From Ligustrum vulgare (lineage: Eukaryota; Streptophyta; Magnoliopsida; Lamiales; Oleaceae), in NCBI GenBank assembly GCA_963555705.1, contig OY743176.1, positions 41,462,497 through 41,526,496 on the forward strand: a DNA stretch of 64,000 nt, read 5' to 3'. The translations under genes and the position numbers were made by a program. The notes under the pieces are model-generated. The model was given only the letters and a program-made list of their open reading frames with translations, searched no databases and was not told where the DNA came from. Below are positions 1-64,000 of the stretch, piece after piece (positions within the stretch are counted from its first letter, which is position 1; each line of letters starts with the position of its first letter).

Positions 1-151
1 TACATGTGTCCCTACTTTAATTTGAAATTCAAATTCTCCCTCCGAAACTCTCGCCCTAAAGTACGAAGATTCTAAATTCAGAATCCGACACATGAGACCG
101 AGTACGTATGTAATCTTCAGTCCACGGAGTGGCACGGCTCCCCCAACCCAT

Positions 152-182
152 GGGAAAACCTATATAATATTACGGTTTGCCC
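152..182 (+). other. Origin-like hairpin of unit M1
   Basis: Left arm GGGAAAACC (152-160), loop TATATAATATTAC (161-173), right arm GGTTTGCCC (174-182); one A-G mismatch in a 9-bp stem. The nonanucleotide TAATATTAC is 165-173 and a Rep-type nick would fall between 171 and 172. In other units the nonanucleotide starts at unit start + 164 (M4: 4160). By reading it is intact in 38 of 42 units, the exceptions being M21, M22, M23 and M26. Confidence 0.85.
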
Positions 183-211
183 GCCCGCCGGGGTCACCTC
201 CGTACAGCCAG

Positions 212-228
212 CTGGCCGAATCCTGGCC
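212..228 (+). promoter_or_regulatory. Iteron-like direct repeat CTGGCC x2 beside the hairpin
   Basis: CTGGCC occurs at 212-217 and 223-228, an 11-nt period (about one helical turn), 30 bp to the right of the hairpin. The pair is repeated in the other units (M2: 1545-1550 and 1556-1561). Rep-binding iterons of CRESS DNA viruses are short direct repeats near the stem-loop. The iteron role is inferred. Confidence 0.4.
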
Positions 229-240
229 ATCCGCTCTTCG

Positions 241-267
241 GATCAACAGGGTTGATTCAGATCAACC
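241..267 (+). promoter_or_regulatory. GATCAAC direct and inverted repeats
   Basis: GATCAAC is at 241-247 and again at 260-266. GGTTGAT (250-256) and ATCAACC (261-267) form a 7-bp inverted repeat with a 4-nt loop. The block is kept in most units, with single-base variants (GAACAAC in M10-M14, GATCAAG in M7, M9 and M18). It could be a protein-binding site or part of the origin region. Confidence 0.4.
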
Positions 268-359
268 GTCGAACTTGAAATTGCCCGTGCTTCTAACTTG
301 TAGCCTCACGATTAGGATGGTCCGTTCAATCGCGAGCGTTTAACTCTGTCGTACACTTG

Positions 360-366
360 TATAAAC
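360..366 (+). promoter_or_regulatory. Virion-sense TATA box (unit M1)
   Basis: TATAAAC lies 35 bp upstream of the ATG at 401 and about 190 bp downstream of the hairpin loop. The element recurs at the same unit position except in M9 and M18, where the 58-bp deletion turns it into GATAAAC. Confidence 0.45.
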
Positions 367-400
367 GTGACGATCTTTTCTCACCATCTTGTTGGCTGTG

Positions 401-562
401 ATGAACATTTTACGGACTGTGATTCTTTCGATATTTATAACATTTTTGATCGTCCTGCAGATATACTTTGAAATTCATTTTGGGAAGTTCTTTCCCGATG
501 AAGATGATGCCATTTTTATTTTATATTTAGTTGTATTCTGTGTCGAGTGTATTCGAAGTTGA
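401..562 (+). CDS. Small two-hydrophobic-segment protein, virion sense (unit M1)
   Basis: A 53-codon ATG-to-TGA frame. Residues about 4-23 are strongly hydrophobic and long enough for a membrane helix. An acidic turn (DEDD, residues 33-36) follows, then a second hydrophobic stretch at about 37-50. It lies in the sense of the TAATATTAC strand, downstream of the hairpin and a TATA box, the place where small ssDNA plant viruses keep short membrane-associated movement proteins. That role is inference from topology and position only. No homologue is recognised, and a frame this short could be chance. Confidence 0.4.
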   Translation: MNILRTVILSIFITFLIVLQIYFEIHFGKFFPDEDDAIFILYLVVFCVECIRS

Positions 563-779
563 ACGATTAATTTATTGCTCGTATTTTGTTCGGACATTTG
601 ATTTGCGAATCTCTTCGTGTCAAATCAGAAACAGATGTAATGAGAACTTTAGATTCGAATTTGAAAATCGTTCAATCAATTCATCGCGTTCAAATCTTAA
701 ATAATTGATATAAAGAACATCGTAGAAACATATACTGTTCAGATCACTCATCCAGAAGATGCAGAATTTCATAGTCATG

Positions 780-1253
780 TTATGTGCACTTGTCCGTATT
801 CTCTTCGCGTCTGTATTGAATGATTTCATAGCCACTGTTCCGAGCTGTCCATGTGTGCGTTGATCTGTGTATGCAGTCGGAGTATTCTGAGTAGTAATCC
901 GAGTCGATCAGGCTGGATATGAATTTTGACAAATTCGTATCTATCTTCAACCTCTCCAGGTTCACGATTATCTGTGCAGCTGGAGTTCTAAGATAGTTTA
1001 TAATTCCCAAATTTATTCCGTCCTTGTAAAACAAGAAGTCGTTGTATTCTGGACACCAGAACGGTCTGAAAACCCACGACATCATTTTCGTTTGCCTGAA
1101 CAAATGATGCATATCTTCAATACGTTCAGAATAATATTTTTTTTTTATCTGTTGTTTTAAATCTTCCGGTAAATTGGAGAACAACTGTCCAAACTCGTGA
1201 TTTTGGTCCAATGCGAATCGAGGCGAGTATTGAGAGGAATTCATGTTTCGCAT
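780..1253 (-). CDS. F-box-like protein with FxCxE motif (unit M1)
   Basis: A complementary-sense frame of 157 codons from the AUG at 1253. The frame stays open upstream to a TTG at 1331, but a plant or viral mRNA would be expected to start at AUG. Residues 25-62 fit the F-box pattern: LPEDL at 28-32, an Ile four residues on, then an ED...LFRQTK...W stretch. FWCPE at 65-69 is one residue away from the retinoblastoma-binding LxCxE. The remainder is charged and Tyr-rich with no motif I recognise. Nanovirus Clink combines an N-terminal F-box with LxCxE at about this length, but is encoded in the virion sense, so homology is a hypothesis. A TATA box lies about 60 nt upstream. Confidence 0.5.
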   Translation of the reverse strand: MRNMNSSQYSPRFALDQNHEFGQLFSNLPEDLKQQIKKKYYSERIEDMHHLFRQTKMMSWVFRPFWCPEYNDFLFYKDGINLGIINYLRTPAAQIIVNLERLKIDTNLSKFISSLIDSDYYSEYSDCIHRSTHTWTARNSGYEIIQYRREENTDKCT

Positions 1254-1312
1254 GCCGAATTCGTAACGGAGTCTCTCAAACTTACTAGTCAATATTTGTA
1301 TTGGTGTATTAC

Positions 1313-1317
1313 TTATA
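1313..1317 (-). promoter_or_regulatory. Complementary-sense TATA box (unit M1)
   Basis: On the minus strand this reads CCTATAAGTA and lies about 60 nt upstream of the AUG at 1253. It is conserved across the units I read except M14 (ACATATAGG, 26982-26990) and M16 (ACGTATAGG), which are altered just there. It is the best candidate promoter for the F-box-like ORF. Confidence 0.45.
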
Positions 1318-1484
1318 GGTGTTGACCACAAAGTACATGTGTCCCTACTTTATTTTGAAATTCAAATTCTCCCTCCGAAACTCTCGCCTTAAAGTACGAA
1401 GATTCTAAATTCAGAATCCGACACATGAGACCGAGTACGTATGTAATCTTCAGTCCACGCAGTGGCATGGCTCCCCCAACCCAT

Positions 1485-1515
1485 GGGCAAACCTATATAA
1501 TATTACGGTTTGCCC
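1485..1515 (+). other. Origin-like hairpin of unit M2, perfect 9-bp stem
   Basis: GGGCAAACC (1485-1493) pairs perfectly with GGTTTGCCC (1507-1515) around the loop TATATAATATTAC; TAATATTAC is 1498-1506. Geminivirus origins have this same form: a GC-rich stem, an 11-13-nt AT-rich loop, and the nonanucleotide at the 3' end of the loop. Confidence 0.88.
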
Positions 1516-1732
1516 GCCCGCCGGGGTCACCTCCGTACAGCCAGCTGGCCGAATCCTGGCCATCCGCTCTTCGGATCAACAGGGTTGATTCAGATCAACC
1601 GTCGAACTTGAAATTGCCCGTGCTTCTAACTTGTAGCCTCACGATTAGGATGGTCCGTTAATCCCGAGCGTTTAACTCTGTCGTACACTTGTATAAACGT
1701 GACGATCTTTTCTCACCGTCTTGTTGGCTGTG

Positions 1733-1894
1733 ATGAACGTTTTACGGACTGTGATTCTTTCGATATTTATAACATTTTTGATCGTCCTGCAGATATACTT
1801 TGAAATTCATTTTGGGAAGTTCTTTCCCGATGAAGATGATGCCATTTTTATTTTATATTTAGTTGTATTCTGTGTCGAGTGTATTCGAAGTTGA
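1733..1894 (+). CDS. Small two-hydrophobic-segment protein (unit M2)
   Basis: Same 53-codon frame as in M1, with Val for Ile at residue 3. Start and stop are retained although the unit has a one-base deletion upstream of the gene. Confidence 0.38.
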   Translation: MNVLRTVILSIFITFLIVLQIYFEIHFGKFFPDEDDAIFILYLVVFCVECIRS

Positions 1895-3064
1895 ACGATT
1901 AATTTATTGCTCGTATTTTGTTCGGACATTTGATTTGCGAATCTCTTCGTGTCAAATCAGAAACATATGTAATGAGAACTTTAGATTCGAATTTGAAAAT
2001 CGTTCAATCAATTTATCGCGTTCAAATCTTAAATAATTGATATAAAGAACATCGTAGAAACATATACTGTTCAGATCACTCATCCAGAAGATGCAGAATT
2101 TCATAGTCATGTTATGTGCACTTGTCCGTATTCTCTTCACGTCTGTATTGAATGATTTCATAGCCATTGTTCCGAGCTGTCCATGTGTACGTTGATCTGT
2201 GTATGCAGTCGGAGTATTCTGAGTAGTAATCCGAGTCGATCAGGCTGGATATCAATTTTGACAAATTCGTATCTATCTTCAACCTCTCGAGGTTCACGAT
2301 TATCTGTGCAGCTGGAGTTCTAAGATAGTTTATAATTCCCAAATTTATTCCGTCCTTGTAAAATAAGAAGTCGTTGTATTCTGGACACCAGAACGGTCTG
2401 AAAACCCACGACATCATTTTCGTTTGCCTGAACAAATGATGCATATCTTCAATACGTTCAGAATAATATATTTTTTTATCTGTTGTTTCAAATATTCCGG
2501 TAAATTGGAGAACAACTGTCCAAACTCGTGATTTTGGTCCAATGCGAATCGAGGCGAGTATTGAGAGGAATTCATGTTTCGCATGCCGAATTCGTAATGG
2601 AGTCTCTCAAACTTACTAGTCAATTTGTGTATTGGTGTATTACTTATAGGTGTTGACCACAAAGTACATGTGTCCCTACTTTAATTTGAAATTCAAATTC
2701 TCCCTCCGAAACTCTCGCCCTAAAGTACGAAGATTCTAAATTCAGAATCCGACACATGAGACCGAGTACGTATGTAATCTTCAGTCCACGCAGTGGCACG
2801 GCTCCCCCAACCCATGGGAAAACCTATATAATATTACGGTTTGGCCGCCCGCCGGGGTCACCTCCGTACAGCCAGCTGGCCGAATCCTGGCCATCCGCTC
2901 TTCGGATCAACAGGGTTGATTCAGATCAACCGTCGAACTTGAAATTGCCCGTGCTTCTAACTTGTAGCCTCACGATTAGGATGGTCCGTTCAATCGCGAG
3001 CGTTTAAAACTGTCGTACACTTGTATAAACGTGACGATCTTTTCTCAGCGTCATGTTGGCTGTG

Positions 3065-3226
3065 ATGAACGTTTTACGGACTGTAATTCTTTCCATATTT
3101 ATAACATTTTTGATCGTCCTTCAGATATACTTTGAAATTCATTTTGGGAAGTTCTTTCCCGATGAAGATGATGCCATTTTTATTTTATATTTAGTTGTAT
3201 TCTGTGTCGAGTGTATTCGAAGTTGA
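3065..3226 (+). CDS. Small two-hydrophobic-segment protein (unit M3)
   Basis: Same frame, 53 codons. The substitutions visible relative to M2 inside the frame (GTGATT to GTAATT, TCG to TCC, CTG to CTT) are all synonymous in this frame. That is weak but suggestive evidence that the frame was once selected. Confidence 0.4.
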   Translation: MNVLRTVILSIFITFLIVLQIYFEIHFGKFFPDEDDAIFILYLVVFCVECIRS

Positions 3227-4395
3227 ACGATTAATTTATTGCTCGTATTTTGTTCGGACATTTGATTTGCGAATCTCTTCGTGTCAAATCAGAAACAGAT
3301 GTAATGAGAACTTTAGATTCGAATTTGAAAATCGTTCAATCAATTCATCGCGTTCAAATCTTAAATAATTGATATAAAGAACATCGCAGAAACATATACT
3401 GTTCAGATCACTCATCCAGAAGATGCAGAATTTCATAGTCATGTTATGTGCACTTGTCCGTATTCTCTTCGCGTCTGTATTGAATGATTTCATAGCCACT
3501 GTTCCGAGCTGTCCATGTGTACGTTGATCTGTGTATGCAGTCGGAGTATTCTGAGTAGTAATCCGAGTCGATCAGGCTGGATATGAATTTTGACAAATTC
3601 GTATCTATCTTCAACCTCTCGAGGTTCACGATTATCTATGCAGCTGGAGTTCTAAGTTACTTTATAATTCCCAAATTTATTCCGTCCTTGTAAAATAAGA
3701 AGTCGTTGTATTCTGGACACCAGAACGGTCTGAAAACCCACGACATCATTTTCGTTTGCCTGAACAAATGATGCATATCTTCAATACGTTCAGAATAATA
3801 TATTTTTTTATCTGTTGTTTCAAATATTCCGGTAAATTGGAGAACAACTGTCCAAACTCGTGATTTTGGTCCAATGCGAATCGAGGCGAGTATTGAGAGG
3901 AATTCATGTTTCGAATGCCGAATTCGTAATGGAGTCTCTCAAACTTACTAGTCAATTTGTGTATTGGTGTATTACTTATAGGTGTTGACCACAAAGTACA
4001 TGTGTCCCTACTTTAATTTGAAATTCAAATTCTCCCTCCGAAACTCTCGCCCTAAAGTACGAAGATTCTAAATTCAGAATCCGACACATGAGACCGAGTA
4101 CGTATGTAATCTTCAGTCCACGCAGTGGCACGGCTCCCCCAACCCATGGGAAAACTATATAATATTACGGTTTGGCCGCCCGCCGGGGTCACCTCCGTAC
4201 AGCCAGCTGGCCGAATCCTGGCCATCCGCTCTTCGGATCAACAGGGTTGATTCAGATCAACCGTCGAACTTGAAATTGCCCGTGCTTCTAACTTGTAGCC
4301 TCACGATTAGGATGGTCCGTTCAATCGCGAGCGTTTAACTCTGTCGTACACTTGTATAAACGTGACGATCTTTTCTCAGCGTCATGTTGGCTGTG

Positions 4396-4557
4396 ATGAA
4401 CGTTTTACGGACTGTAATTCTTTCCATATTTATAACATTTTTTATCGTCCTTCAGATATACTTTGAAATTCATTTTGGGAAGTTCTTTCCCGATGAAGAT
4501 GATGCCATTTTTATTTTATATTTAGTTGTATTCTGTGTCGAGTGTATTCGAAGTTGA
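4396..4557 (+). CDS. Small two-hydrophobic-segment protein (unit M4)
   Basis: Same 53-codon frame, with the synonymous changes of M3 plus one Leu-to-Phe change in the first hydrophobic segment (TTG to TTT). This is the last full-length copy. From M5 onward TTTATATTTAG reads TTTATATTGA, which stops the frame after 42 codons and removes the second hydrophobic segment. Confidence 0.38.
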   Translation: MNVLRTVILSIFITFFIVLQIYFEIHFGKFFPDEDDAIFILYLVVFCVECIRS

Positions 4558-5328
4558 ACGATTAATTTATTGCTCGTATTTTGTTCGGACATTTGATTTG
4601 CGAATCTCTTCGTGTCAAATCAGAAACAGATGTAATGAGAACTTTAGATTCGAATTTGAAAATCGTTCAATCAATTCATCGCGTTCAAATCTTAAATAAT
4701 TGATATAAAGAACATCGTAGAAACATATACTGTTCAGATCACTCATCCAGAAGATGCAGAATTTCATAGTCATGTTATGTGCACTTGTCCATATTCTCTT
4801 CACGTCTGTATTGAATGATTTCATAGCCACTGTTCCGAGCTGTCCATGTGTACGTTGATCTGTGTATGCAGTCGGAGTATTCTGAGTAGTAATCCGAGTC
4901 GATCAGGCTGGATATGAATTTTGACAAATTCGTATCTATCTTCAACCTCTCGAGGTTCACGATTATCTATGCAGCTGGAGTTCTAAGTTACTTTATAATT
5001 CCCAAATTTATTCCGTCCTTGTAAAATAAGAAGTCGTTGTATTCTGGACACCAGAACGGTCTGAAAACCCACGACATCATTTTCGTTTGCCTGAACAAAT
5101 GATGCATATCTTCAATACGTTCAGAATAATATATTTTTTTTATCTGTTGTTTCAAATATTCAGGTAAATTGGAGAACAACTGTCCAAACTCGTGATTTTG
5201 GTCCAATGCGAATCGAGGCGAGTATTGAGAGGAATTCATGTTTCGAATGCCGAATTCGTAATGGAGTCTCTCAAACTTACTAGTCAATTTGTGTATTGGT
5301 GTATTACTTATAGGTGTTGACCACAAAG

Positions 5329-6344
5329 TACATGTGTCCCTACTTTAATTTGAAATTCAAATTCTCCCTCCGAAACTCTCGCCCTAAAGTACGAAGATTC
5401 TAAATTCAGAATCCGACACATGAGACCGAGTACGTATGTAATCTTCAGTCCACGCAGTGACACGGCTCCCCCAACCCCTGGGCAAACCTATATAATATTA
5501 CGGTTTGCCTGCCCGCCGGGGTCACCTCCGTACAGCCAGCTGGTCGAATCCTGGCCATCCGCTCTTCGAATCAACAGGGTTGATTCAGATCAACCGTCGA
5601 ACTTGAAATTGCCCGTACTTCAAACTTGTAGCCTCACAATTAGGATGGTCCGTTCAATCGCGAGCGTTTAACTCTGTCGTACACTTGTATAAACGTGACG
5701 ATCTTTTCTCACCGTCTTGTTGGCTATGATGAACGTTTTATGGACTGTGATTCTTTCGATATTTATAACATTTTTGATCGTCCTGCAGATATACTTTGAA
5801 ATTCATTTTGGGAAGTTCTTTCCCGATGAAGATGATGCCATTTGTATTTTATATTGAGTTGTATTCTGTGTCGAGTGTATTCGAAGTTGAACGATTAATT
5901 TATTGCTCGTATTTTGTCCGGACATCTGATTTGCGAATTTCTTCGTGTCAAATCAGAAACAGATGTAATGAGAACTTTAGATTCGAATTTGAAAATCGTT
6001 CAATCAATTTATCGCGTTCAAATCTTAAATAATTGATATAAAGAACATCGTAGAAACATATACTGTTCAGATCACTCATCCAGAAGATGCATAATTTCAT
6101 AGTCATGTTATGAGCACTTGTCCATATTCTCTTCGCGTCTGTATTGAATGATTTTATAGCCACTGTTCCGAGCTGTCCATGTGTACGTTGATCTGTGTAT
6201 GCAGTCGGAGTATTCTGAGTAGTAATCCGAGTCGATCAGGCTGGATATGAATTTTGACAAATTCGTATCTATCTTCAACCTCTCGAGGTTCACGATTATC
6301 TGTGCAGCTGGAGTTCTAAGATAGTTTATAATTCCCAAATTTAT
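5329..6344 (+). repeat. Unit M5, left part, interrupted by the retrotransposon
   Basis: The first 1,016 bp of unit M5 end in TTTAT, where the LTR element begins. The unit resumes at 14757. Joined without the insert it is 1,332 bp, exactly one repeat unit. M5 is mostly type A but already has the TATATTGAGTTG variant that truncates the virion-sense ORF, so it is transitional. Its hairpin loop carries an intact TAATATTAC at 5493-5501. Confidence 0.95.
6340..6344 (+). repeat. Target-site duplication TTTAT, left copy
   Basis: The uninterrupted repeat reads CCCAAATTTATTCCGTCC. TTTAT is present once there and on both sides of the element here (6340-6344 and 14752-14756), the 5-bp duplication expected of LTR-retrotransposon integrase. 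Confidence 0.93.
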
Positions 6345-6841
6345 TGTGACGACCCGAATTCTCGACCATTCGAGTGCCACTAAAAGTGACTCATATCATA
6401 TTATCGAGACTTAAATAGTAATGTAAAATTATTCAAAAGAATAATTAGAATCCCATAATTTTATTTGTGAATAAAAATAGAACATAATTATCTCATCAAT
6501 CTTAACCACTTTTGCCACTTCCATGTTGACCGCCTCGAACCTTCAATTATCTGAAAATGGTAAATATCGTGGAGTGAGATTTATAAAATCCCAGTAAGTA
6601 TACCAAGCATAATTTTCTTTTGAAAGCATATGGATCATTTTCATCATAACATAGGATAGGATCGAAATCCTCATAAACATAGAGAGACACAAGAATTTTA
6701 CCGAACTTAGATGGCAAGAATTCTTATGTGTAGCGCTACTAAACTCCGATTCCCTTGCATAATTATAAACATATCATATCATATGGGACCCAGAATAATT
6801 TCTTGGAATTGATTCCATTGTAATGATCCAAACATAAATAG

Positions 6842-7650
6842 CATACTTACTTTTCTTAAAAACATAATGTATTTTACTTTTCATAAAAACATACTTACTT
6901 TTCTTAAAAACATAAGGTGTATTTACCTTTCATAAAAACATACTTACTTTTCATAAAAACATAAAGTAATACCTTTCATAAAAACATACTTACTTTTCAT
7001 AAAAACATAAGGTATATTTACCTTTCATAAAAACATACTTACTTTTCATAAAAACATAAAGTAATACCTTTCATAAAAACATACTTACTTTTCATAAAAA
7101 CATAAGGTATATTTACCTTTCATAAAAACATACTTACTTTATAAAAACATAAGATATACTTACTTGTCATAAAAACATACTTACTTTTCATAAAAACATA
7201 AGGTGTATTTACCTTTCATAAAAACATACTTACTTTTCATAAAAACATAAGATATACTTACTTGTCATAAAAACATACTTACTTTTCATAAAAACATAAG
7301 GTGTATTTACCTTTCATAAAAACATACTTACTTTTCATAAAAACATAAGATATACTTACTTGTCATAAAAACATACTTACTTTTCATAAAAACATAAGGT
7401 GTATTTACCTTTCATAAAAACATACTTACTTTTCATAAAAACATAAGATATACTTACTTGTCATAAAAACATACTTACTTTTCATAAAAACATAAGGTGT
7501 ATTTACCTTTCATAAAAACATACTTACTTTTCATAAAAACATAAAGTAATACCTTTCATAAAAACATACTTACTTTTCATAAAAACATAAGGTATATTTA
7601 CCTTTCATAAAAACATACTTACTTTTCATAAAAACATAAAGTAATACCTT
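6842..7650 (+). repeat. Minisatellite in the left LTR (CATACTTACTTTTCATAAAAA-type)
   Basis: Tandem variants of a short unit built from ATACTTACTTTTCATAAAAAC, organised in higher units of about 97-98 bp. The AAGATATACTTACTTG variant occurs four times here and three times in the right LTR. Confidence 0.9.
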
Positions 7651-8028
7651 TCATATACTTTTCCATATTTATACAAATATTATGCTCTTCATGATTACAT
7701 ATAATGGAGTCTTATCAACCATTCATATACTTTTCCATATTTATACAAATATTATGCTCTTCATGATTACATATAATGGAATCTTATCAACCATTCATAT
7801 ACTTTTCCATATTTATACAAATATTATGCTCTTCATGATTACATATAATGGAGTCTATAATTCATTCATATACTTTTCCATATTTATACAAATATTATGC
7901 TCTTCATGATTACATATAATGGAGTATATAATTCATTCATATACTTTTCCATATTTATACAAATATTATGCTCTTCATGATTACATATAATGGAGTATAT
8001 AATTCATTCATATACTTTTCCATATTTA
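7651..8028 (+). repeat. 71-72-bp tandem repeat in the left LTR, about five copies
   Basis: Units contain TATGCTCTTCATGATTAC, with ATG at 7682, 7754, 7826, 7897 and 7968. The 75-codon frame that crosses it is a by-product of the repeat, not a gene. Confidence 0.9.
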
Positions 8029-8336
8029 TTAAATTAAGATTCTCATAATTATTATATATAATGGAACCTCTCATGCTTGCATATATTTTCTTAATTTCAA
8101 TAATAAAAATAATTTTTGTATAAATAAATATTGGGATAACATTGAATTAAGTACTTGGACTTAATATACTTTAAATCAAGAGAATGGAGATATTTTTAGA
8201 AATTCGGAATTTAATTTAAAATCGAACGATCTCGATTATTTCTTGACTTGGCTATACGAATACGTCGCGGCGTTAACTTAATAAAAATGGGTGAAATAGT
8301 AGCGACACGATTTTCTATTAAAATAATTATTAATCG

Positions 8337-9190
8337 AAATTAAACTTACTTGATCTTATGATTTCTGAACACTTAATCAGAATCTCTTCTTCTTCTTCTT
8401 ATGTAGCATCATCGCTACCATATTTAACCCAACCATATTTAACCCACTGGACTTTGACTAAATGCATCAATTTGTTTTCTTAAGAACATGTACTTTTCTT
8501 ATCAATAATAGATATATGTGTCTACTCATAAATTCTGACTCAAAATGAAAATTTCCAATCGTATGTGATATTTCATCATATCTTGTAGTACTCATGTAAC
8601 CTGTCACTTATCATAGTATCATGTAACCTCAAATATTCGTATTAATATCTCTAAAATTTCAATAAATCTTTACTAACATATCATACCATAATAATTTGTC
8701 ATTTCTTCTTATCACCAAATATCCCAAAATAATTAAAACGATTAACTGAATATTCTCTATGTAATATACCCAAACATGTTATTCACATATCAACATAATC
8801 ATCAGTTTATCTTTCCAATATTTGTAACCCAAAATTTCTGCAAAATTCAATAAACAAATTTCTCCCAAATAATTAAAATTCTTAACTCAAATATCATAAC
8901 ATTTCCCGTAAGGTATTCCTTTCACTTGCACAAACTTATTAATCCTGATTCAATACAGTCCTTATTTCACTTTCACGTATCCCCGTATTATTTCTATACC
9001 TTGATTATTATATCAAAATATCAGTACCCAAAATCCAAGAAAATATTCCATATCTCAAATCCCGTCATCATCAAATCTTCCTTTTATCAAGAAAGTAAAC
9101 GGCACATAAACTCTTGTTCCCTCTTTTCCATTATTCTATTCTGCGCTTTCTTGCTGGAATCAATATCACGCGGATTCCCTCCGATCCTTA
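8337..9190. other. AT-rich internal region, no gene seen
   Basis: Between the left LTR and the first cargo gene. A pyrimidine run (CTCTTCTTCTTCTTCTTA, about 8383-8400) is purine-rich on the minus strand and could be a relic of the polypurine tract, but it lies about 45 bp from the visible LTR boundary. The 92-codon plus-strand frame starting at 8926 has no recognisable motif and is AT-driven, so it is not called. Confidence 0.5.
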
Positions 9191-9790
9191 ATGCTTTTAA
9201 ATAGTTCATGCTGGGAAGAGGTTAGATCCATCAAAAACATGGATATCATTCTTACAAACATTCGCAAGTATTATTCCAGTCTTCCAATGAATGATCTGAG
9301 GAAAATTTATCGAATAAGACTCGAAAGATTGAGGTTGCTGATGGCTCATGGTGTTTCAGAAGATGTTCGCTGGTTGATCGAAGCAAAGGTTCGACTATCT
9401 GGTGAATTACCTATGACATTTCCAAAGCACATGCCTGGTTTAGGCAAAAGCACCTTCGCAAAGAAACGAAGAGCAAAAAGGCTGAATGGTTGCTACAAAT
9501 GTGCTCGTTGGAACTGTGATACTCGTTGCAAAACAGTAGGATATTCTTCTACTAATCGGGATGATAAAATCAAATTCATAAAGGGTGGACTGAGTAAGGA
9601 GTCTTTGGATGATATTCGACTGACTCTTGAGACGCACCCAAGTGGTTATGTGCAACGTGAACTTTTCTCCTTATACGCTCAGTTTAACGGGGACAAAAAT
9701 CGTTATAGTCTCCAAAATATAATAGCAAAAGATCCTGTTTGCCAGTCTGTTTTACAAAATGAGGCTTCTGGCAGTTCATCAATGATATAA
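9191..9790 (+). CDS. Basic cysteine-cluster protein, Betaflexiviridae nucleic-acid-binding-like
   Basis: 199 codons from ATG 9191; a second in-frame ATG at 9239 (MDIIL) may be the real start. Residues 20-70 are helical and charged. Residues 88-97 hold a basic patch (STFAKKRRAKR spans 87-97), followed at once by Cys 101, 104, 109 and 113 (CX2CX4CX3C). A further segment, DDKIKFIKGG (124-133), follows, then about 65 residues of unrecognised C-terminus. A basic arm abutting a four-Cys finger and then a K..FI..G segment is the layout of the small nucleic-acid-binding, silencing-suppressor-type proteins of carlaviruses and vitiviruses. That is a pattern resemblance, not an alignment, and the usual viral proteins are about half this length. 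It lies 337 bp upstream of the LOG gene in the same orientation and antisense to the retrotransposon. Confidence 0.5.
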   Translation: MLLNSSCWEEVRSIKNMDIILTNIRKYYSSLPMNDLRKIYRIRLERLRLLMAHGVSEDVRWLIEAKVRLSGELPMTFPKHMPGLGKSTFAKKRRAKRLNGCYKCARWNCDTRCKTVGYSSTNRDDKIKFIKGGLSKESLDDIRLTLETHPSGYVQRELFSLYAQFNGDKNRYSLQNIIAKDPVCQSVLQNEASGSSSMI

Positions 9791-9846
9791 GGTAAATCTC
9801 TTGATACACATTTAAAATATTTTGCTGTTTTCTTTCACGCGTTTTG

Positions 9847-9937: not shown

Positions 9938-9951
9938 TCACCGAAAGGTGA
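9938..9951 (+). other. Hairpin with GAAA tetraloop
   Basis: TCACC-GAAA-GGTGA is a perfect 5-bp stem with a GNRA tetraloop, just after the 41-bp duplication. It is a possible RNA structure at the 3' side of the upstream gene; function unknown. Confidence 0.4.
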
Positions 9952-9990
9952 TATCTTTGGTAAAACAGTCAAAAGTTGGCCGATTTTGTC

Positions 9991-52500: not shown

Positions 52501-54903
52501 GATCAACCGTCGAACTTGAAATTTCCCGTGCTTCTAACTTGTAGCCTCACGATTAGGATGGTCTGTTCAATCGCGAGCGTTTAACTCTGTCGTACACTTG
52601 TATAAACGTGACGATCTTTTCTCACCGTCTTGTTGGCTGTGATGAACGTTTTACGGACTATGATTCTTTCGATATTTATAACATTTTTTATCGTCCTGCA
52701 GATATACTTTGAAATTCATTTTGGGAAGTTCTTTCCCGATGAAGATGATGCCATTTGTATTTTATATTGATGTGTATTCTGTGTCGAGTGTATTCGAAGT
52801 TGAACGATTAATTTATAGCTCGTATTTTGTTCGGACATTGGATTTGCGAATCTCTTCATGTCAAATCAGAAACAGATGTAATGAGAACTTTAGATTCGAA
52901 TTTGAAAATCGTTCAATCAATTTATCGCGTTCAAATCGTAAATAATTGTTATAAAGAACATCGTAGAAACATATACTGTTCAGATCACTCATCCAGAAGA
53001 TGCAGAATTTCATAGTCATGTTATGTGCACTTGTCCATATTCTCTTCGCGTCTGTATTGAATGATTTCGTAGCCTCTGTTCCGAGCCGTCCATGTGTACG
53101 TTGATCTGTGTATGCAGTTGGAGTATTCTGAGTAGTAATCCGAGTCGATCAGGCTGGATATGAATTTTGACAAATTCGTATCTATCTTCAACCTCTCGAG
53201 GTTCTCGATTATCAGTGCAGCTGGAGTTCTGAGATAATTTATAATTCCCAAATTTATTCCGTCCTTGTAAAATAAGAAGTCGTTGTATTCTGGACACCAG
53301 AACGGTCTGAAAACCCACGACATCATTTTCGTTTGCCTGAACAAATGATGCATATCTTCAATATGTTGAGAATAATATTTTTTTTATCTGTTGTTTCAAA
53401 TCTTCCGGTAAATTGGAGAACAACTGTCCAAACTCGTGATTTGTGTCCAATGCGAATCGAGGCAAGTATTGAGAGGAATTCATGTTTCGCATGCCGAATT
53501 CGTAACGGAGTCTCTCAAACTTACTAGTCAATATTTTTATTGGTGTATTACTTATAGGTGTTGACCACAAAGTACATGTGTCCCTACTTTAATTTGAAAT
53601 TCAAATTCTCCCTCCGAAACTCCCGCCCTAAAGTACGAAGATTCTAAATTCAAAATCCGACACAAGGGACCGAGTACGTATGGAATCTTCAGCCCACGCA
53701 ATGGCACGGCTCCCACAACCCGCGGGAAAACCTATATAATATTACGGTTTGCCCGCCCGCCGGGGTCAACTCCGTACAGCCAGCTGGCCGAATCCTTGCC
53801 ATCCGCTCTTCGGATGAACAGGGTTGATTCAGATCAACCGTCGAACTTGAAATTGCCCGTGCTTCTAACTTGTAGCCTCACGATTAGGATGGTCCGTTCA
53901 ATCGCGAGCGTTTAACTCTATCGTACACTTGTATAAACGTGACGATCTTTTCTCCCGTCTTGTTGGTTGTGATGAACGTTTTACGGACTATGATTCTTTC
54001 GATATTTATAACATTTTTTATCGTCCTGCAGATATACTTTGAAATTCATTTTGGGAAGTTATTTCCCGATGAAGATGATGCCATTTGTATTTTATATTGA
54101 TGTGTATTCTGTGTCGAGTGTATTCGAAGTTGAACGATTAATTTATAGCTCGTATTTTGTTCGGACATTGGATTTGCGAATCTCTTCATGTCAAATCAGA
54201 AACAGATGTAATGAGAACTTTAGATTTGAATTTGAAAATCGTTCAATCAATTTATCGCGTTCAAATCGTAAATAATTGTTATAAAGAACATCGTAGAAAC
54301 ATATACTGTTCAGATCACTCATCCAGAAGATGCAGAATTTCATAGTCATGTTATGTGCACTTGTCCATATTCTCTTCGCGTCTGTATTGAATGATTTCGT
54401 AGCCTCTGTTCCGAGCCGTCCATGTGTACGTTGATCTGTGTATGCAGTCGGAGTATTCTGAGTAGTAATCCGAGTCGATCAGGCTGGATTTGAATTTTGA
54501 CAAATTCGTATCTATCTTCAACCTCTCGAGGTTCTCGATTATCTGTGCAGCTGGAGTTCTGAGATAATTTATAATTCCCAAATTTATTTCGTCCTTGTAA
54601 AATAAGAAGTCGTTGTATTCTGGACACCAGAACGGTCTGAAAACCCACGACATCATTTTCGTTTGCCTGAAAAAATGATGCATATCTTCAATATGTTGAG
54701 AATAATATTTTTTTTTATCTGTTGTTTCAAATCTTCCGGTAAATTGGAGAACATCTGTCCAAACTCGTGATTTTGGTCCAATGCGAATCGAGGCGAGTAT
54801 TGAGAGGAATTCATGTTTCGCATGCCGAATTCGTAACGGAGTCTCTCAAACTTACTAGTCAATATTTGTATTGGTGTATTACTTATAGGTGTTGACCACA
54901 AAG
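49583..54903 (+). repeat. Units M32-M35, dimeric higher-order repeat
   Basis: Units start at 49583, 50914, 52242 and 53573. M32 matches M34 (CCCGTCGGGGTC) and M33 matches M35 (ACACAAGGGACC, TTGTTGGTTGTG, AAGTTATTTCCC). This is a two-unit block of about 2,659 bp copied twice. Confidence 0.95.
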
Positions 54904-57900
54904 TACATGTGTCCCTACTTTAATTTGAAATTCAAATTCTCCCTCCGAAACTCCCGCCCTAAAGTACGAAGATTCTAAATTCAAAATCCGACACATGGGA
55001 CCGAGTACGTATGGAATCTTCAGTCCACGCAATGGCACGGCTCCCACAACCCGCGGGAAAACCTATATAATATTACGGTTTGCCCGCCCGCCGGGGTAAA
55101 CTCCGTACAGCCAGCTGGCCGAATCCTGGCCATCCGCTCTTCGAATCAACAGGGTTGATTCAGATCAACCGTCGAACTTGAAATTGCCCGTGCTTCTAAC
55201 TTGTAGCCTCACGATTAGGATGGTCCGTTCAATCGCGAGCGTTTAACTCTGTCATACACTTGTATAAACGTGACGGTCTTTTCTCGCCGTCTTGTTGGTT
55301 GTGATGAACGTTTTACGGACTATGATTCTTTCGATATTTATAACATTTTTGATCGTCCTGCAGATATACTTTGAAATTCATTTTGGGAAGTTCTTTCCCG
55401 ATGAAGATGATGCCATTTGTATTTTATATTGATGTGTATTCTGTGTCGAGTGTATTCGAAGTTGAACGATTAATTTATAGCTCGTATTTTGTTCGGACAT
55501 TTGATTTGGGAATCTCTTCATGTCAAATCAGAAACAGATGTAATGAGAACTTTAGATTCGAATTTGAAAATCGTTCAATCAATTTATCGCGTTCAAATCG
55601 TAAATAATTGTTATAAAGAACATCGTAGAAACATATACTGTTCAGATCACTCATCCAGAAGATGCAGAATTTCATAGTCATGTTATGTGCACTTGTCCAT
55701 ATTCTCTTCGCGTCTGTATTGAATGATTTCGTAGCCTCTGTTCCGAGCCGTCCATGTGTACGTTGATCTGTGTATGCAGTCGGAGTATTCTGAGTAGTAA
55801 TCCGAGTCGATCAGGCTGGATATGAATTTTGACAAATTCGTATCTATCTTCAACCTCTCGAGGTTCTCGATTATCTGTGCAGCTGGAGTTCTGAGATAAT
55901 TTATAATTCCCAAATTTATTCCGTCCTTGTAAAATAAGAAGTCGTTGTATTCTGGACACCAGAACGGTCTGAAAACCCACGACATCATTTTCGTTTGCCT
56001 GAACAAATGATGCATATCTTCAATATGTTGAGAATAATATTTTTTTTTATCTGTTGTTTCAAATCTTCCGGTAAATTGGAGAACAACTGTCCAAACTCGT
56101 GATTTGTGTCCAATGCGAATCGAGGCAAGTATTGAGAGGAATTCATGTTTCGCATGCCGAATTCGTAACGGAGTCTCTCAAACTTACTAGTCAATATTTT
56201 TATTGGTGTATTACTTATAGGTGTTGACCACAAAGTACATGTGTCCCTACTTTAATTTGAAATTCAAATTCTCCCTCCGAAACTCCCGCCCTAAAGTACG
56301 AAGATTCTAAATTCAAAATCCGACACAAGGGACCGAGTACGTATGGAATCTTCAGCCCACGCAATGGCACGGCTCCCACAACCCGCGGGAAAACCTATAT
56401 AATATTACGGTTTGCCCGCCCGCCGGGGTCAACTCCGTACAGCCAGCTGGCCGAATCCTTGCCATCCGCTCTTCGGATGAACAGGGTTGATTCAGATCAA
56501 CCGTCGAACTTGAAATTGCCCGTGCTTCTAACTTGTAGCCTCACGATTAGGATGGTCCGTTCAATCGCGAGCGTTTAACTCTATCGTACACTTGTATAAA
56601 CGTGACGATCTTTTCTCCCGTCTTGTTGGTTGTGATGAACGTTTTACGGACTATGATTCTTTCGATATTTATAACATTTTTGATCGTCCTGCAGATATAC
56701 TTTGAAATTCATTTTGGGAAGTTATTTCCCGATGAAGATGATGCCATTTGTATTTTATATTGATGTGTATTCTGTGTCGAGTGTATTCGAAGTTGAACGA
56801 TTAATTTATAGCTCGTATTTTGTTCGGACATTGGATTTGCGAATCTCTTCATGTCAAATCAGAAACAGATGTAATGAGAACTTTAGATTTGAATTTGAAA
56901 ATCGTTCAATCAATTTATCGCGTTCAAATCGTAAATAATTGTTATAAAGAACATCGTAGAAACATATACTGTTCAGATCACTCATCCAGAAGATGCAGAA
57001 TTTCATAGTCATGTTATGTGCACTTGTCCATATTCTCTTCGCGTCTGTATTGAATGATTTCGTAGCCTCTGTTCCGAGCCGTCCATGTGTACGTTGATCT
57101 GTGTATGCAGTCGGAGTATTCTGAGTAGTAATCCGAGTCGATCAGGCTGGATATGAATTTTGACAAATTCGTATCTATCTTCAACCTCTCGAGGTTCTCG
57201 ATTATCTGTGCAGCTGGAGTTCTGAGATAATTTATAATTCCCAAATTTATTCCGTCCTTGTAAAATAAGAAGTCGTTGTATTCTGGACACCAGAACGGTC
57301 TGAAAACCCACGACATCATTTTCGTTTGCCTGAACAAATGATGCATATCTTCAATATGTTGAGAATAATATTTTTTTTTATCTGTTGTTTCAAATCTTCC
57401 GGTAAATTGGAGAACAACTGTCCAAACTCGTGATTTGTGTCCAATGCGAATCGAGGCAAGTATTGAGAGGAATTCATGTTTCGCATGCCGAATTCGTAAC
57501 GGAGTCTCTCAAACTTACTAGTCAATATTTTTATTGGTGTATTACTTATAGGTGTTGACCACAAAGTACATGTGTCCCTACTTTAATTTGAAATTCAAAT
57601 TCTCCCTCCGAAACTCCCGCCCTAAAGTACGAAGATTCTAAATTCAAAATCCGACACAAGGGACCGAGTACGTATGGAATCTTCAGCCCACGCAATGGCA
57701 CGGCTCCCACAACCCGCGGGAAAACCTATATAATATTACGGTTTGCCCGCCCGCCGGGGTCAACTCCGTACAGCCAGCTGGCCGAATCCTTGCCATCCGC
57801 TCTTCGGATGAACAGGGTTGATTCAGATCAACCGTCGAACTTGAAATTGCCCGTGCTTCTAACTTGTAGCCTCACGATTAGGATGGTCCGTTCAATCGCG

Positions 57901-60900
57901 AGCGTTTAACTCTATCGTACACTTGTATAAACGTGACGATCTTTTCTCCCGTCTTGTTGGTTGTGATGAACGTTTTACGGACTATGATTCTTTCGATATT
58001 TATAACATTTTTTATCGTCCTGCAGATATACTTTGAAATTCATTTTGGGAAGTTATTTCCCGATGAAGATGATGCCATTTGTATTTTATATTGATGTGTA
58101 TTCTGTGTCGAGTGTATTCGAAGTTGAACGATTAATTTATAGCTCGTATTTTGTTCGGACATTGGATTTGCGAATCTCTTCATGTCAAATCAGAAACAGA
58201 TGTAATGAGAACTTTAGATTTGAATTTGAAAATCGTTCAATCAATTTATCGCGTTCAAATCGTAAATAATTGTTATAAAGAACATCGTAGAAACATATAC
58301 TGTTCAGATCACTCATCCAGAAGATGCAGAATTTCATAGTCATGTTATGTGCACTTGTCCATATTCTCTTCGCGTCTGTATTGAATGATTTCGTAGCCTC
58401 TGTTCCGAGCCGTCCATGTGTACGTTGATCTGTGTATGCAGTCGGAGTATTCTGAGTAGTAATCCGAGTCGATCAGGCTGGATATGAATTTTGACAAATT
58501 CGTATCTATCTTCAACCTCTCGAGGTTCTCGATTATCTGTGCAGCTGGAGTTCTGAGATAATTTATAATTCCCAAATTTATTCCGTCCTTGTAAAATAAG
58601 AAGTCGTTGTATTCTGGACACCAGAACGGTCTGAAAACCCACGACATCATTTTCGTTTGCCTGAACAAATGATGCATATCTTCAATATGTTGAGAATAAT
58701 ATTTTTTTTTATCTGTTGTTTCAAATCTTCCGGTAAATTGGAGAACAACTGTCCAAACTCGTGATTTGTGTCCAATGCGAATCGAGGCAAGTATTGAGAG
58801 GAATTCATGTTTCGCATGCCGAATTCGTAACGGAGTCTCTCAAACTTACTAGTCAATATTTTTATTGGTGTATTACTTATAGGTGTTGACCACAAAGTAC
58901 ATGTGTCCCTACTTTAATTTGAAATTCAAATTCTCCCTCCGAAACTCCCGCCCTAAAGTACGAAGATTCTAAATTCAAAATCCGACACAAGGGACCGAGT
59001 ACGTATGGAATCTTCAGCCCACGCAATGGCACGGCTCCCACAACCCGCGGGAAAACCTATATAATATTACGGTTTGCCCGCCCGCCGGGGTCAACTCCGT
59101 ACAGCCAGCTGGCCGAATCCTTGCCATCCGCTCTTCGGATGAACAGGGTTGATTCAGATCAACCGTCGAACTTGAAATTGCCCGTGCTTCTAACTTGTAG
59201 CCTCACGATTAGGATGGTCCGTTCAATCGCGAGCGTTTAACTCTATCGTACACTTGTATAAACGTGACGATCTTTTCTCCCGTCTTGTTGGTTGTGATGA
59301 ACGTTTTACGGACTATGATTCTTTCGATATTTATAACATTTTTTATCGTCCTGCAGATATACTTTGAAATTCATTTTGGGAAGTTATTTCCCGATGAAGA
59401 TGATGCCATTTGTATTTTATATTGATGTGTATTCTGTGTCGAGTGTATTCGAAGTTGAACGATTAATTTATAGCTCGTATTTTGTTCGGACATTGGATTT
59501 GCGAATCTCTTCATGTCAAATCAGAAACAGATGTAATGAGAACTTTAGATTTGAATTTGAAAATCGTTCAATCAATTTATCGCGTTCAAATCGTAAATAA
59601 TTGTTATAAAGAACATCGTAGAAACATATACTGTTCAGATCACTCATCCAGAAGATGCAGAATTTCATAGTCATGTTATGTGCACTTGTCCATATTCTCT
59701 TCGCGTCTGTATTGAATGATTTCGTAGCCTCTGTTCCGAGCCGTCCATGTGTACGTTGATCTGTGTATGCAGTCGGAGTATTCTGAGTAGTAATCCGAGT
59801 CGATCAGGCTGGATATGAATTTTGACAAATTCGTATCTATCTTCAACCTCTCGAGGTTCTCGATTATCTGTGCAGCTGGAGTTCTGAGATAATTTATAAT
59901 TCCCAAATTTATTCCGTCCTTGTAAAATAAGAAGTCGTTGTATTCTGGACACCAGAACGGTCTGAAAACCCACGACATCATTTTCGTTTGCCTGAAAAAA
60001 TGATGCATATCTTCAATATGTTGAGAATAATATTTTTTTTTATCTGTTGTTTCAAATCTTCCGGTAAATTGGAGAACATCTGTCCAAACTCGTGATTTTG
60101 GTCCAATGCGAATCGAGGCGAGTATTGAGAGGAATTCATGTTTCGCATGCCGAATTCGTAACGGAGTCTCTCAAACTTACTAGTCAATATTTGTATTGGT
60201 GTATTACTTATAGGTGTTGACCACAAAGTACATGTGTCCCTACTTTAATTTGAAATTCAAATTCTCCCTCCGAAACTCCCGCCCTAAAGTACGAAGATTC
60301 TAAATTCAAAATCCGACACATGGGACCGAGTACGTATGGAATCTTCAGTCCACGCAATGGCACGGCTCCCACAACCCGCGGGAAAACCTATATAATATTA
60401 CGGTTTGCCCGCCCGCCGGGGTCAACTCCGTACAGCCAGCTGGCCGAATCCTGGCCATCCGCTCTTCGGATCAACAGGGTTGATTCAGATCAACCGTCGA
60501 ACTTGAAATTGCCCGTGCTTCTAACTTGTAGCCTCACGATTAGGATGGTCCGTTCAATCGCGAGCGTTTAACTCTGTCATACACTTGTATAAACGTGACG
60601 GTCTTTTCTCGCCGTCTTGTTGGTTGTGATGAACGTTTTACGGACTATGATTCTTTCGATATTTATAACATTTTTGATCGTCCTGCAGATATACTTTGAA
60701 ATTCATTTTGGGAAGTTCTTTCCCGATGAAGATGATGCCATTTGTATTTTATATTGATGTGTATTCCGTGTCGAGTGTATTCGAAGTTGAACGATTAATT
60801 TATAGCTCGTATTTTGTTCGGACATTTGATTTGGGAATCTCTTCATGTCAAATCAGAAACAGATGTAATGAGAACTTTAGATTCGAATTTGAAAATCGTT

Positions 60901-63900
60901 CAATCAATTTATCGCGTTCAAATCGTAAATAATTGTTATAAAGAACATCGTAGAAACATATACTGTTCAGATCACTCATCCAGAAGATGCAGAATTTCAT
61001 AGTCATGTTATGTGCACTTGTCCATATTCTCTTCGCGTCTGTATTGAATGATTTCGTAGCCTCTGTTCCGAGCCGTCCATGTGTACGTTGATCTGTGTAT
61101 GCAGTCGGAGTATTCTGAGTAGTAATCCGAGTCGATCAGGCTGGATATGAATTTTGACAAATTCGTATCTATCTTCAACCTCTCGAGGTTCTCGATTATC
61201 TGTGCAGCTGGAGTTCTGAGATAATTTATAATTCCCAAATTTATTCCGTCCTTGTAAAATAAGAAGTCGTTGTATTCTGGACACCAGATCGGTCTGAAAA
61301 CCCACGACATCATTTTCGTTTGCCTGAACAAATGATGCATATCTTCAATATGTTGAGAATAATATTTTTATTTTATCTGCTGTTTCAAATCTTCCGGTAA
61401 ATTGGAGAACAACTGTCCAAACTCGTGATTTTGGTCCAATGCGAATCGAGGCGAGTATTGAGAGGAATTCATGTTTCGCATGCCGAATTCGTAACGGAGT
61501 CTCTCAAACTTACTAGTCAATATTTTTATTGGTGTATTACTTATAGGTGTTGACCACAAAGTACATGTGTCCCTACTTTAATTTGAAATTCAAATTCTCC
61601 CTCCGAAACTCCCGCCCTAAAGTACGAAGATTCTAAATTCAAAATCCGACACAAGGGACCGAGTACGTATGGAATCTTCAGCCCACGCAATGGCACGGCT
61701 CCCACAACCCGCGGGAAAACCTATATAATATTACGGTTTGCCCGCCCGCCGGGGTCAACTCCGTACAGCCAGCTGGCCGAATCCTTGCCATCCGCTCTTC
61801 GGATGAACAGGGTTGATTCAGATCAACCGTCGAACTTGAAATTGCCCGTGCTTCTAACTTGTAGCCTCACGATTAGGATGGTCCGTTCAATCGCGAGCGT
61901 TTAACTCTATCGTACACTTGTATAAACGTGACGATCTTTTCTCCCGTCTTGTTGGTTGTGATGAACGTTTTACGGACTATGATTCTTTCGATATTTATAA
62001 CATTTTTTATCGTCCTGCAGATATACTTTGAAATTCATTTTGGGAAGTTATTTCCCGATGAAGATGATGCCATTTGTATTTTATATTGATGTGTATTCTG
62101 TGTCGAGTGTATTCGAAGTTGAACGATTAATTTATAGCTCGTATTTTGTTCGGACATTGGATTTGCGAATCTCTTCATGTCAAATCAGAAACAGATGTAA
62201 TGAGAACTTTAGATTTGAATTTGAAAATCGTTCAATCAATTTATCGCGTTCAAATCGTAAATAATTGTTATAAAGAACATCGTAGAAACATATACTGTTC
62301 AGATCACTCATCCAGAAGATGCAGAATTTCATAGTCATGTTATGTGCACTTGTCCATATTCTCTTCGCGTCTGTATTGAATGATTTCGTAGCCTCTGTTC
62401 CGAGCCGTCCATGTGTACGTTGATCTGTGTATGCAGTCGGAGTATTCTGAGTAGTAATCCGAGTCGATCAGGCTGGATTTGAATTTTGACAAATTCGTAT
62501 CTATCTTCAACCTCTCGAGGTTCTCGATTATCTGTGCAGCTGGAGTTCTGAGATAATTTATAATTCCCAAATTTATTTCGTCCTTGTAAAATAAGAAGTC
62601 GTTGTATTCTGGACACCAGAACGGTCTGAAAACCCACGACATCATTTTCGTTTGCCTGAAAAAATGATGCATATCTTCAATATGTTGAGAATAATATTTT
62701 TTTTTATCTGTTGTTTCAAATCTTCCGGTAAATTGGAGAACATCTGTCCAAACTCGTGATTTTGGTCCAATGCGAATCGAGGCGAGTATTGAGAGGAATT
62801 CATGTTTCGCATGCCGAATTCGTAACGGAGTCTCTCAAACTTACTAGTCAATATTTGTATTGGTGTATTACTTATAGGTGTTGACCACAAAGTACATGTG
62901 TCCCTACTTTAATTTGAAATTCAAATTCTCCCTCCGAAACTCCCGCCCTAAAGTACGAAGATTCTAAATTCAAAATCCGACACATGGGACCGAGTACGTA
63001 TGGAATCTTCAGTCCACGCAATGGCACGGCTCCCACAACCCGCGGGAAAACCTATATAATATTACGGTTTGCCCGCCCGCCGGGGTCAACTCCGTACAGC
63101 CAGCTGGCCGAATCCTGGCCATCCGCTCTTCGGATCAACAGGGTTGATTCAGATCAACCGTCGAACTTGAAATTGCCCGTGCTTCTAACTTGTAGCCTCA
63201 CGATTAGGATGGTCCGTTCAATCGCGAGCGTTTAACTCTGTCATACACTTGTATAAACGTGACGGTCTTTTCTCGCCGTCTTGTTGGTTGTGATGAACGT
63301 TTTACGGACTATGATTCTTTCGATATTTATAACATTTTTGATCGTCCTGCAGATATACTTTGAAATTCATTTTGGGAAGTTCTTTCCCGATGAAGATGAT
63401 GCCATTTGTATTTTATATTGATGTGTATTCTGTGTCGAGTGTATTCGAAGTTGAACGATTAATTTATAGCTCGTATTTTGTTCGGACATTTGATTTGGGA
63501 ATCTCTTCATGTCAAATCAGAAACAGATGTAATGAGAACTTTAGATTCGAATTTGAAAATCGTTCAATCAATTTATCGCGTTCAAATCGTAAATAATTGT
63601 TATAAAGAACATCGTAGAAACATATACTGTTCAGATCACTCATCCAGAAGATGCAGAATTTCATAGTCATGTTATGTGCACTTGTCCATATTCTCTTCGC
63701 GTCTGTATTGAATGATTTCGTAGCCTCTGTTCCGAGCCGTCCATGTGTACGTTGATCTGTGTATGCAGTCGGAGTATTCTGAGTAGTAATCCGAGTCGAT
63801 CAGGCTGGATATGAATTTTGACAAATTCGTATCTATCTTCAACCTCTCGAGGTTCTCGATTATCTGTGCAGCTGGAGTTCTGAGATAATTTATAATTCCC

Positions 63901-64000
63901 AAATTTATTCCGTCCTTGTAAAATAAGAAGTCGTTGTATTCTGGACACCAGATCGGTCTGAAAACCCACGACATCATTTTCGTTTGCCTGAACAAATGAT
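54904..64000 (+). repeat. Units M36-M42, recent amplification, truncated by window end
   Basis: Units start at 54904, 56236, 57567, 58898, 60229, 61562 and 62893; the last runs out of the window. M37, M38, M39 and M41 are M33-like (ACACAAGGG). M36, M40 and M42 form a second type (CGCAATGGCACGG with ACACATGGG, GATTTGGGAATC). All keep TAATATTAC. In every one the F-box-like frame is broken at the T-run. Confidence 0.95.

What the first reader, a model, noticed from the sequence alone, without database searches (positions are those of the whole stretch)
1..64000. Geminivirus-type origin hairpin repeated in almost every unit of a 1.33-kb plant satellite
Seen: a GC-rich stem of 9-11 bp with loop TATATAATATTAC, ending in TAATATTAC, at the same place in each ~1,332-bp unit; intact nonanucleotide in 38 of 42 units. 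Known: TAATATTAC at the 3' end of such a loop is the Rep nick site of geminiviruses and betasatellites. A chance 9-mer would not also sit at the right place in a perfect stem. Inference: the array descends from a circular ssDNA replicon that integrated as a concatemer or was amplified afterwards. Geminivirus-related repeats (GRD in Nicotiana) are a precedent, but those carry Rep sequence, which I do not see here.
Basis: partly seen in the sequence, partly recalled or inferred. Interest (0 to 1): 0.95.

Follow-up and report, generated by a model that had tools for sequence, protein, structure and literature searches.

The report
Viral-origin hairpin in plant satellite array
A long tandem DNA repeat, apparently from a plant chromosome, carries in each 1.33-kb unit what looks like the replication origin and a decayed gene of a small circular virus-like DNA, which suggests that a satellite repeat grew from an integrated viral circle of a kind not clearly matching any known one.

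Summary
The observation largely holds. TAATATTAC occurs 38 times, all on the + strand (1.12 expected), at 38 of 42 hairpin sites. In 20,000 shuffled units, none of 346 chance nonamers had a flush stem over 5 bp; here 14 of 42 have 9-11 bp, 1 has 8, 24 have 5 then a mismatch, 3 have 1. So the 'perfect stem' is true of a third. 6345-14751 is a young LTR retrotransposon, not satellite. New: a 156-167-codon complementary-sense ORF, intact in 11 of 40 full units, longer than chance (6 of 3000 shuffles) and codon-periodic (P 0.0048), with a short virion-sense ORF across the hairpin. No Rep, no protein relative and no A-rich region were found. Today the ORF drifts neutrally and the loop is kept no better than most of the unit. 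Best explanation: a dead, amplified copy of a Rep-less, half-genome-size geminivirus-like circle (satellite, component or virus/host minicircle). Tandem geminiviral arrays are known (Nicotiana GRD, yam EGV1) but carry rep. Host unidentified; no plant genome or geminivirus collection could be searched, so missing relatives are weak evidence of novelty.

The parts
1..6344 (+). satellite array, left part (4 full 1.33-kb units plus partial units)
   Evidence: blastn of one natural unit against the window; unit list
14752..64000 (+). satellite array, right part (36 full units plus partial units)
21823..21857 (+). example hairpin: 11-bp uninterrupted stem (21823-21833 / 21847-21857), 13-nt loop 21834-21846 ending in TAATATTAC 21838-21846
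   Evidence: 21790-21900 folded as DNA, z -3.23, 0 of 200 shuffles as stable
44418..44430 (+). example loop with intact nonanucleotide whose stem is broken by an A.G mismatch at pair 6 (24 of 42 hairpins stop at 5 pairs)
35107..35115 (+). mutated nonanucleotide; the others start at 36439, 37768 and 41759 (4 of 42)
20700..20705 (+). virion-sense TATAAA, 196 nt after the start of the nonanucleotide; TATAAA in 38 of 40 full units
   Evidence: weak, since each unit strand holds 5-9 TATA words
20741..20869 (+). short virion-sense ORF with a hydrophobic stretch, example unit, 42 aa (42 aa in 31 units, 53 in 4, 33 in 3, 2 of 40 not scored)
   Evidence: no Pfam match for this copy, E 0.54 below cut-off for another copy. 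Coding not shown
21652..21657 (-). complementary-sense TATA-like word (TATAAG), about 180 nt before the next origin; unchanged in 38 of 40 units
   Evidence: weak, as above
21120..21623 (-). complementary-sense ORF, 167 aa, example unit; open from ATG to its stop at 156-167 aa in 11 of 40 full units, shorter or broken in 29
   Evidence: length: 6 of 3000 shuffles (on the unit at 165); codon-position asymmetry P 0.0048
780..1253 (-). same ORF in the first full unit, 157 aa from ATG
6345..14751 (-). LTR retrotransposon inserted in a satellite unit near unit position 850 (TG...CA ends, target duplication TTTAT at 6340-6344 and 14752-14756); not part of the satellite

Best explanation
The array is a chromosomal fossil of a small circular single-stranded DNA replicon of geminivirus type, about 1.33 kb, that had no Rep of its own and was copied in trans by a helper. 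Shown: a hairpin ending its loop with TAATATTAC, a 156-167-codon complementary-sense ORF on one side, a short virion-sense ORF on the other. [quoted passage not shown] one entered a chromosome. Shown by the unit pattern: the array was then homogenised locally, ORF and hairpin drifted without visible selection, and a retrotransposon jumped in. Whether the circle was an independent satellite, a genome component or a virus/host minicircle is open; the first two rivals below are sub-cases of this statement, so their odds overlap with it.
For: Nonanucleotide at 38 of 42 sites, + strand only. 20,000 shuffled units: 346 nonamers, no flush stem over 5 bp. ORF: open stretch of 189 codons reached by 6 of 3000 shuffles; codon-position asymmetry P 0.0048, against 0.62 for a control stretch of the same unit. 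Present neutrality: 22 synonymous, 76 non-synonymous, 8 stop variants against 24.5, 73.9, 7.6 expected. Chromosomal evolution: identity 98.2% at lag 1, 97.0% at lag 13. No Rep match in ten frames of a unit. [quoted passage not shown]
Against: No sequence relative of any part was found: protein search, 15 candidates, none at E up to 10; IMG/VR; plasmids. No repeat near the hairpin stands out as an iteron. 28 of 42 stems are interrupted below 9 bp. The TATA words are weak evidence: 5-9 TATA words per strand in each of three units checked, and no AATAAA was found in a shared place behind the ORF. The virion-sense ORF is too short to be shown as a gene. The geminivirus link thus rests on origin, layout and length alone.
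Confidence: 0.72

Rival explanations
1. Virus/host minicircle: a geminivirus intergenic region joined to host DNA, copied as a half-genome circle by the virus, then put back into a chromosome as a concatemer. The ORF would be host-derived or mixed.
For: Such circles exist: 1241-1572 nt for those found by sequencing, all with the viral stem-loop and intergenic region (PMC6293997, passages). The unit length fits.
Against: The inserts of the field-collected minicircles were AT rich (69.8-71.2%) and lacked ORFs; here the unit is about 60% AT and has a coding-like ORF beside the origin. No protein matched the ORF.
Confidence: 0.3
2. Half-length defective DNA or a component (DNA-B-like) of an unknown bipartite geminivirus-like virus.
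For: ORFs on both sides of one hairpin region; Olea europaea geminivirus DNA-B has a complementary-sense ORF of 177 aa without known relatives (PMC8000510 section 14).
Against: OEGV DNA-B is 2763 nt with a recognisable 296-aa movement protein; here no such domain was found. In OEGV DNA-B the orphan ORF lies far from the origin (1757-1224), here it starts about 210-240 nt from it. The proteins were not compared: I had no copy of the OEGV one.
Confidence: 0.2
3. Betasatellite-type element.
For: Size about 1.3 kb, hairpin with TAATATTAC, one complementary-sense ORF, no Rep found.
Against: No A-rich region: at most 39% A in any 160-nt stretch of one unit. ORF of 156-167 aa, longer than a 13.5-kDa protein (size from PMC12193555), without a significant Pfam match.
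Confidence: 0.07
4. Ordinary plant satellite with a chance hairpin, or a Helitron end.
For: The units now evolve as neutral chromosomal satellite and the loop is kept no better than most 9-mers. A CTRR word (CTGG) does follow the stem, about 27 nt on, in the sequence.
Against: Chance geometry is excluded in 20,000 shuffled units. A Helitron end is expected 10-12 nt after its hairpin (recalled), and TAATATTAC is not a Helitron feature (recalled); no Helitron protein was seen.
Confidence: 0.05

Closest known systems
GRD repeats of Nicotiana (from passages of PMC5014472; original papers not read)
   Same: direct repeats in plant chromosomes with a geminivirus-type origin; reported as neutral
   Different: each GRD element holds a degenerate truncated rep; no Rep match found here
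EGV1 of Dioscorea (PMC5014472, passages)
   Same: tandem repeat with GC-rich stem and loop TAATATTAC
   Different: 2,642-bp repeat with partial rep and ren; some rep lineages under purifying selection; here 1.33 kb, no rep found, ORF neutral
Betasatellites (PMC12193555, passages)
   Same: size, origin, complementary-sense ORF, no Rep
   Different: no A-rich region; ORF longer and unmatched; conserved region not testable here
BCTIV virus/host minicircles (PMC6293997, passages)
   Same: 1241-1572 nt circles with the viral stem-loop, amplified in trans
   Different: described as free molecules in infected beet; field inserts without ORFs
Olea europaea geminivirus DNA-B (PMC8000510, passages and section 14)
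   Same: orphan complementary-sense ORF of similar length (177 aa)
   Different: 2,763 nt, recognisable movement protein, ORF placed elsewhere; proteins not compared

Membership tests
Endogenous geminivirus arrays (GRD, EGV1) | tandem chromosomal repeats with hairpin and TAATATTAC | tested here: met
Endogenous geminivirus arrays (GRD, EGV1) | rep gene or fragment in the unit | tested here: not met
   ten stop-to-stop frames of one unit against Pfam, no Rep match at E up to 1; shorter frames and other units not scanned, no positive control run
Betasatellite | about 1.3-kb unit, TAATATTAC hairpin, complementary-sense ORF, no Rep | tested here: met
Betasatellite | A-rich region of 160-280 nt | tested here: not met
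   one unit: at most 39% A in 160 nt, 35% in 200 nt
Betasatellite | betaC1 protein, 13.5 kDa | tested here: inconclusive
   no significant Pfam match; that Pfam holds a betaC1 model is recalled, not checked; ORF longer
Betasatellite | satellite conserved region of about 125 nt | not testable with these tools
   no betasatellite sequences at hand
Alphasatellite | encodes its own Rep | tested here: not met
   same limits as above
Deltasatellite | about 0.7 kb, no protein | tested here: not met
   unit 1.33 kb; ORF with coding statistics
Virus/host minicircle | half-genome size with the viral stem-loop | tested here: met
   size; hairpin
Virus/host minicircle | part of the circle is host chromosomal DNA | not testable with these tools
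   no plant genome could be searched; the genome search did not answer in 11 identical tries
F-box / RB-binding viral protein (nanovirus Clink type) | F-box and LxCxE motif | tested here: inconclusive
   LPEDLKQQI fits the minimal LPxxI/L consensus (PMC6784205) and FWCPE is one residue off LxCxE; no Pfam F-box match up to E 10; seen after the fact
Helitron | hairpin shortly before a CTRR end | tested here: inconclusive
   nearest CTRR about 27 nt after the stem, by eye

The most novel reading that the evidence does not exclude
An unknown class of Rep-less, geminivirus-dependent satellite, with an orphan protein that may bind SKP1 or RB-related proteins, integrated and founded a plant satellite DNA (over 55 kb of it in this window); satellite repeats of plant chromosomes can thus be born from viral circles.
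Probability: 0.3. Interest if true: 0.85.

Novelty: new variant of a known kind. Interest (0 to 1): 0.62.

Why it matters
The endogenous geminivirus arrays described in the passages I read (PMC5014472, PMC7758297) are recognised by rep. An array with the origin and an orphan ORF but no rep would be missed by searches for rep. If right, it shows that Rep-less circles can found satellite DNA, and gives a fossil of a satellite or component type outside alpha-, beta- and deltasatellites as described in PMC12193555. It makes two questions testable: where long-unit plant satellites come from, and whether geminivirus satellites begin as minicircles, as PMC6293997 suggests.

Tried and rejected
Led nowhere: a unit against phage records, 13 records with one 42-bp chance match each, E 0.4; plasmids none. 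IMG/VR: exact hairpin 0; ORF, 3 pattern matches, none confirmed; ORF alignment, 52 pattern matches, none confirmed; downstream GC-rich stretch 0. Protein search of the ORF: 15 candidates, none at E up to 10. PDB sequences: 11 matches up to E 10, best E 0.0029 to a bacterial putative lipoprotein (4gio), taken as chance. Pfam: only sub-threshold hits, Rtt106_N E 0.044 for a 46-aa piece and CHIP_TPR_N E 0.32 for one copy, E 0.14 and 0.16 for two other frames, E 0.54 for one copy of the short ORF. PHROGs none. Rfam none at gathering score, no tRNA. AlphaFold models had mean pLDDT 45.1 and 36.5, so no fold search was made.

Rejected: chance hairpin; assembly of free concatemers; selection on the ORF inside the array; special conservation of the loop: retention 0.90 against a mean of 0.852, matched or beaten by 54% of 9-mers, and the bins beside it are among the more variable. 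Iterons: only short AT-rich or palindromic repeats.

Full report
What is there. The window is a head-to-tail array of about 1.33-kb units from 1 to 6344 and from 14752 to 64000, interrupted by one insertion. There are 40 full units, 38 of 1328-1333 bp and 2 of 1274 bp. TAATATTAC occurs 38 times, always on the + strand, against 1.12 expected from shuffles. Of 42 hairpin sites 38 keep the nonanucleotide; the other four start at 35107, 36439, 37768 and 41759.

The stem. Counting uninterrupted Watson-Crick pairs flush with the 3' end of the loop, 9 hairpins have 11 bp, 5 have 9, 1 has 8, 24 have 5 and then a mismatch (A.G in 23, A.C in 1), and 3 have 1. The mismatch is not compensated on the other arm. 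Folded as single-stranded DNA, 111 nt around an 11-bp form is more stable than all 200 shuffles (z -3.23), while one 9-bp and one mismatched form are not special (z -0.93 and -0.95). Chance is excluded all the same: 20,000 dinucleotide shuffles of one unit gave 346 nonamers, the longest flush stem being 5 bp.

The rest of the unit. Count from the first base of the nonanucleotide. A complementary-sense ORF runs from 1119 or 1089 down to 616; it is open from ATG to its stop at 156-167 aa in 11 of 40 units. It is unlikely to be chance: in the unit at 165 the open stretch of 189 codons was reached by 6 of 3000 shuffles, and in the unit at 20505 its codon-position asymmetry has P 0.0048, against 0.62 for a control stretch of the same unit. 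On the other side a short virion-sense ORF with a hydrophobic stretch starts at 237: 42 aa in 31 units, 53 in 4, 33 in 3, 2 not scored. A TATAAA stands at +196 and a TATAAG on the other strand at 1153, each in 38 of 40 units; but the three units checked hold 5-9 TATA words per strand, and no AATAAA lies in a shared place behind the ORF, so the promoter reading is suggestive only. A hairpin between diverging genes is the plan of a geminivirus intergenic region (PMC5014472, passage).

What it encodes. Nothing recognisable. Pfam gave no family for the ORF copies at 780-1331 and 21120-21623, and only sub-threshold hits elsewhere: E 0.32 for a third copy, 0.044 for a 46-aa piece, 0.14 and 0.16 among ten stop-to-stop frames of one unit. 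PHROGs gave none. The protein search had 15 candidates and no hit. Two motifs seen after the fact, LPEDLKQQI and FWCPE, recall the F-box and LxCxE of nanovirus Clink (PMC3588083, PMC6784205, PMC10653810, passages); the second is one residue off, and Pfam does not see an F-box. This is a lead only.

Present state. The array evolves like neutral chromosomal satellite. In the ORF 106 variants split 22 synonymous, 76 non-synonymous, 8 stop, against 24.5, 73.9 and 7.6 expected. The nonanucleotide is kept in 0.90 of the 40 units; 54% of 9-mers do as well or better. Mean identity of units is 97.1%; it falls from 98.2% for neighbours to 97.0% at 13 units apart, and some units recur far apart almost unchanged, for example 17899 and 29835 (99.92%). 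I read this as unequal exchange or conversion in place.

The insertion. 6345-14751 has TG...CA ends, a 5-bp target duplication TTTAT, and beside the right LTR, at 12825, a primer-binding site of initiator-tRNA type on the minus strand (the tRNA identity is recalled). Two LTR stretches outside the minisatellites differ by 2 of 752 compared bases plus 2 gap columns, so it is recent and the array is older. Whole-LTR BLAST gave 95-98% because the minisatellites differ in copy number.

Host. Not established. The insertion's NABP-like ORF has named relatives in Orobanche hederae, gracilis and minor (59-66%), Populus, Xanthoceras and Acer, in the best 120 of 413 listed; several better or equal hits are unnamed. 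Its LOG ORF has an unnamed relative at 92% and named ones in Xanthoceras, Diospyros and Reevesia at 51-59%. A flowering plant is likely; Orobanchaceae is a guess.

Classification. It shares the array form with Nicotiana GRD and yam EGV1, but those hold rep (PMC5014472, passages). Against the satellite classes as described in PMC12193555 (passages), no Rep was found as in alphasatellites, it is twice the deltasatellite size, and it lacks the A-rich region of betasatellites. A strong rival is a virus/host minicircle of 1241-1572 nt (PMC6293997, passages), though the field-collected ones had AT-rich inserts without ORFs. I saw no report of a rep-less, half-genome-size array of this kind in the listings of searches; these cover open-licence papers, and most listings were capped at 10-25 titles.

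Limits. No plant genome and no geminivirus or satellite collection could be searched: the genome search did not answer in 11 tries, and the viral collection seems to hold few small circles. The lack of relatives is therefore weak evidence of novelty.

Noticed in passing
window 9191-9790 (+), inside the LTR element: ORF of 199 aa with Viral_NABP and Carla_C4 domains (E 1.4e-7 and 7.9e-5), antisense to the element; 413 relatives at E up to 1, best 120 listed, among them named proteins of Orobanche, Populus, Acer and Xanthoceras; four listed Orobanche ones also carry PF03641, the LOG-type domain.
   Followed up: partly
window 10128-10781 (+), inside the LTR element: Uninterrupted LOG-type (PF03641, E 2.4e-33) ORF of 217 aa, also antisense: a retrotransposon carrying a virus-like NABP ORF and a cytokinin-enzyme-like ORF side by side.
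   Followed up: partly
window 6833-8065 and 13323-14457: Both LTRs hold 49-bp and 71-bp minisatellites; the left 49-bp array is 98 bp longer.
   Followed up: no
window 8333 and 14729-14751: The inner end of the left LTR lacks about 23 bp found at the outer end of the right LTR (GGTCGCTAC occurs only at 14742).
   Followed up: no
window 19231-20504 and 31167-32440: Two units, 11,936 bp apart, share one deletion of about 59 bp after unit position 136; the units before them, 17899 and 29835, are 99.92% identical, which suggests a duplicated block.
   Followed up: partly
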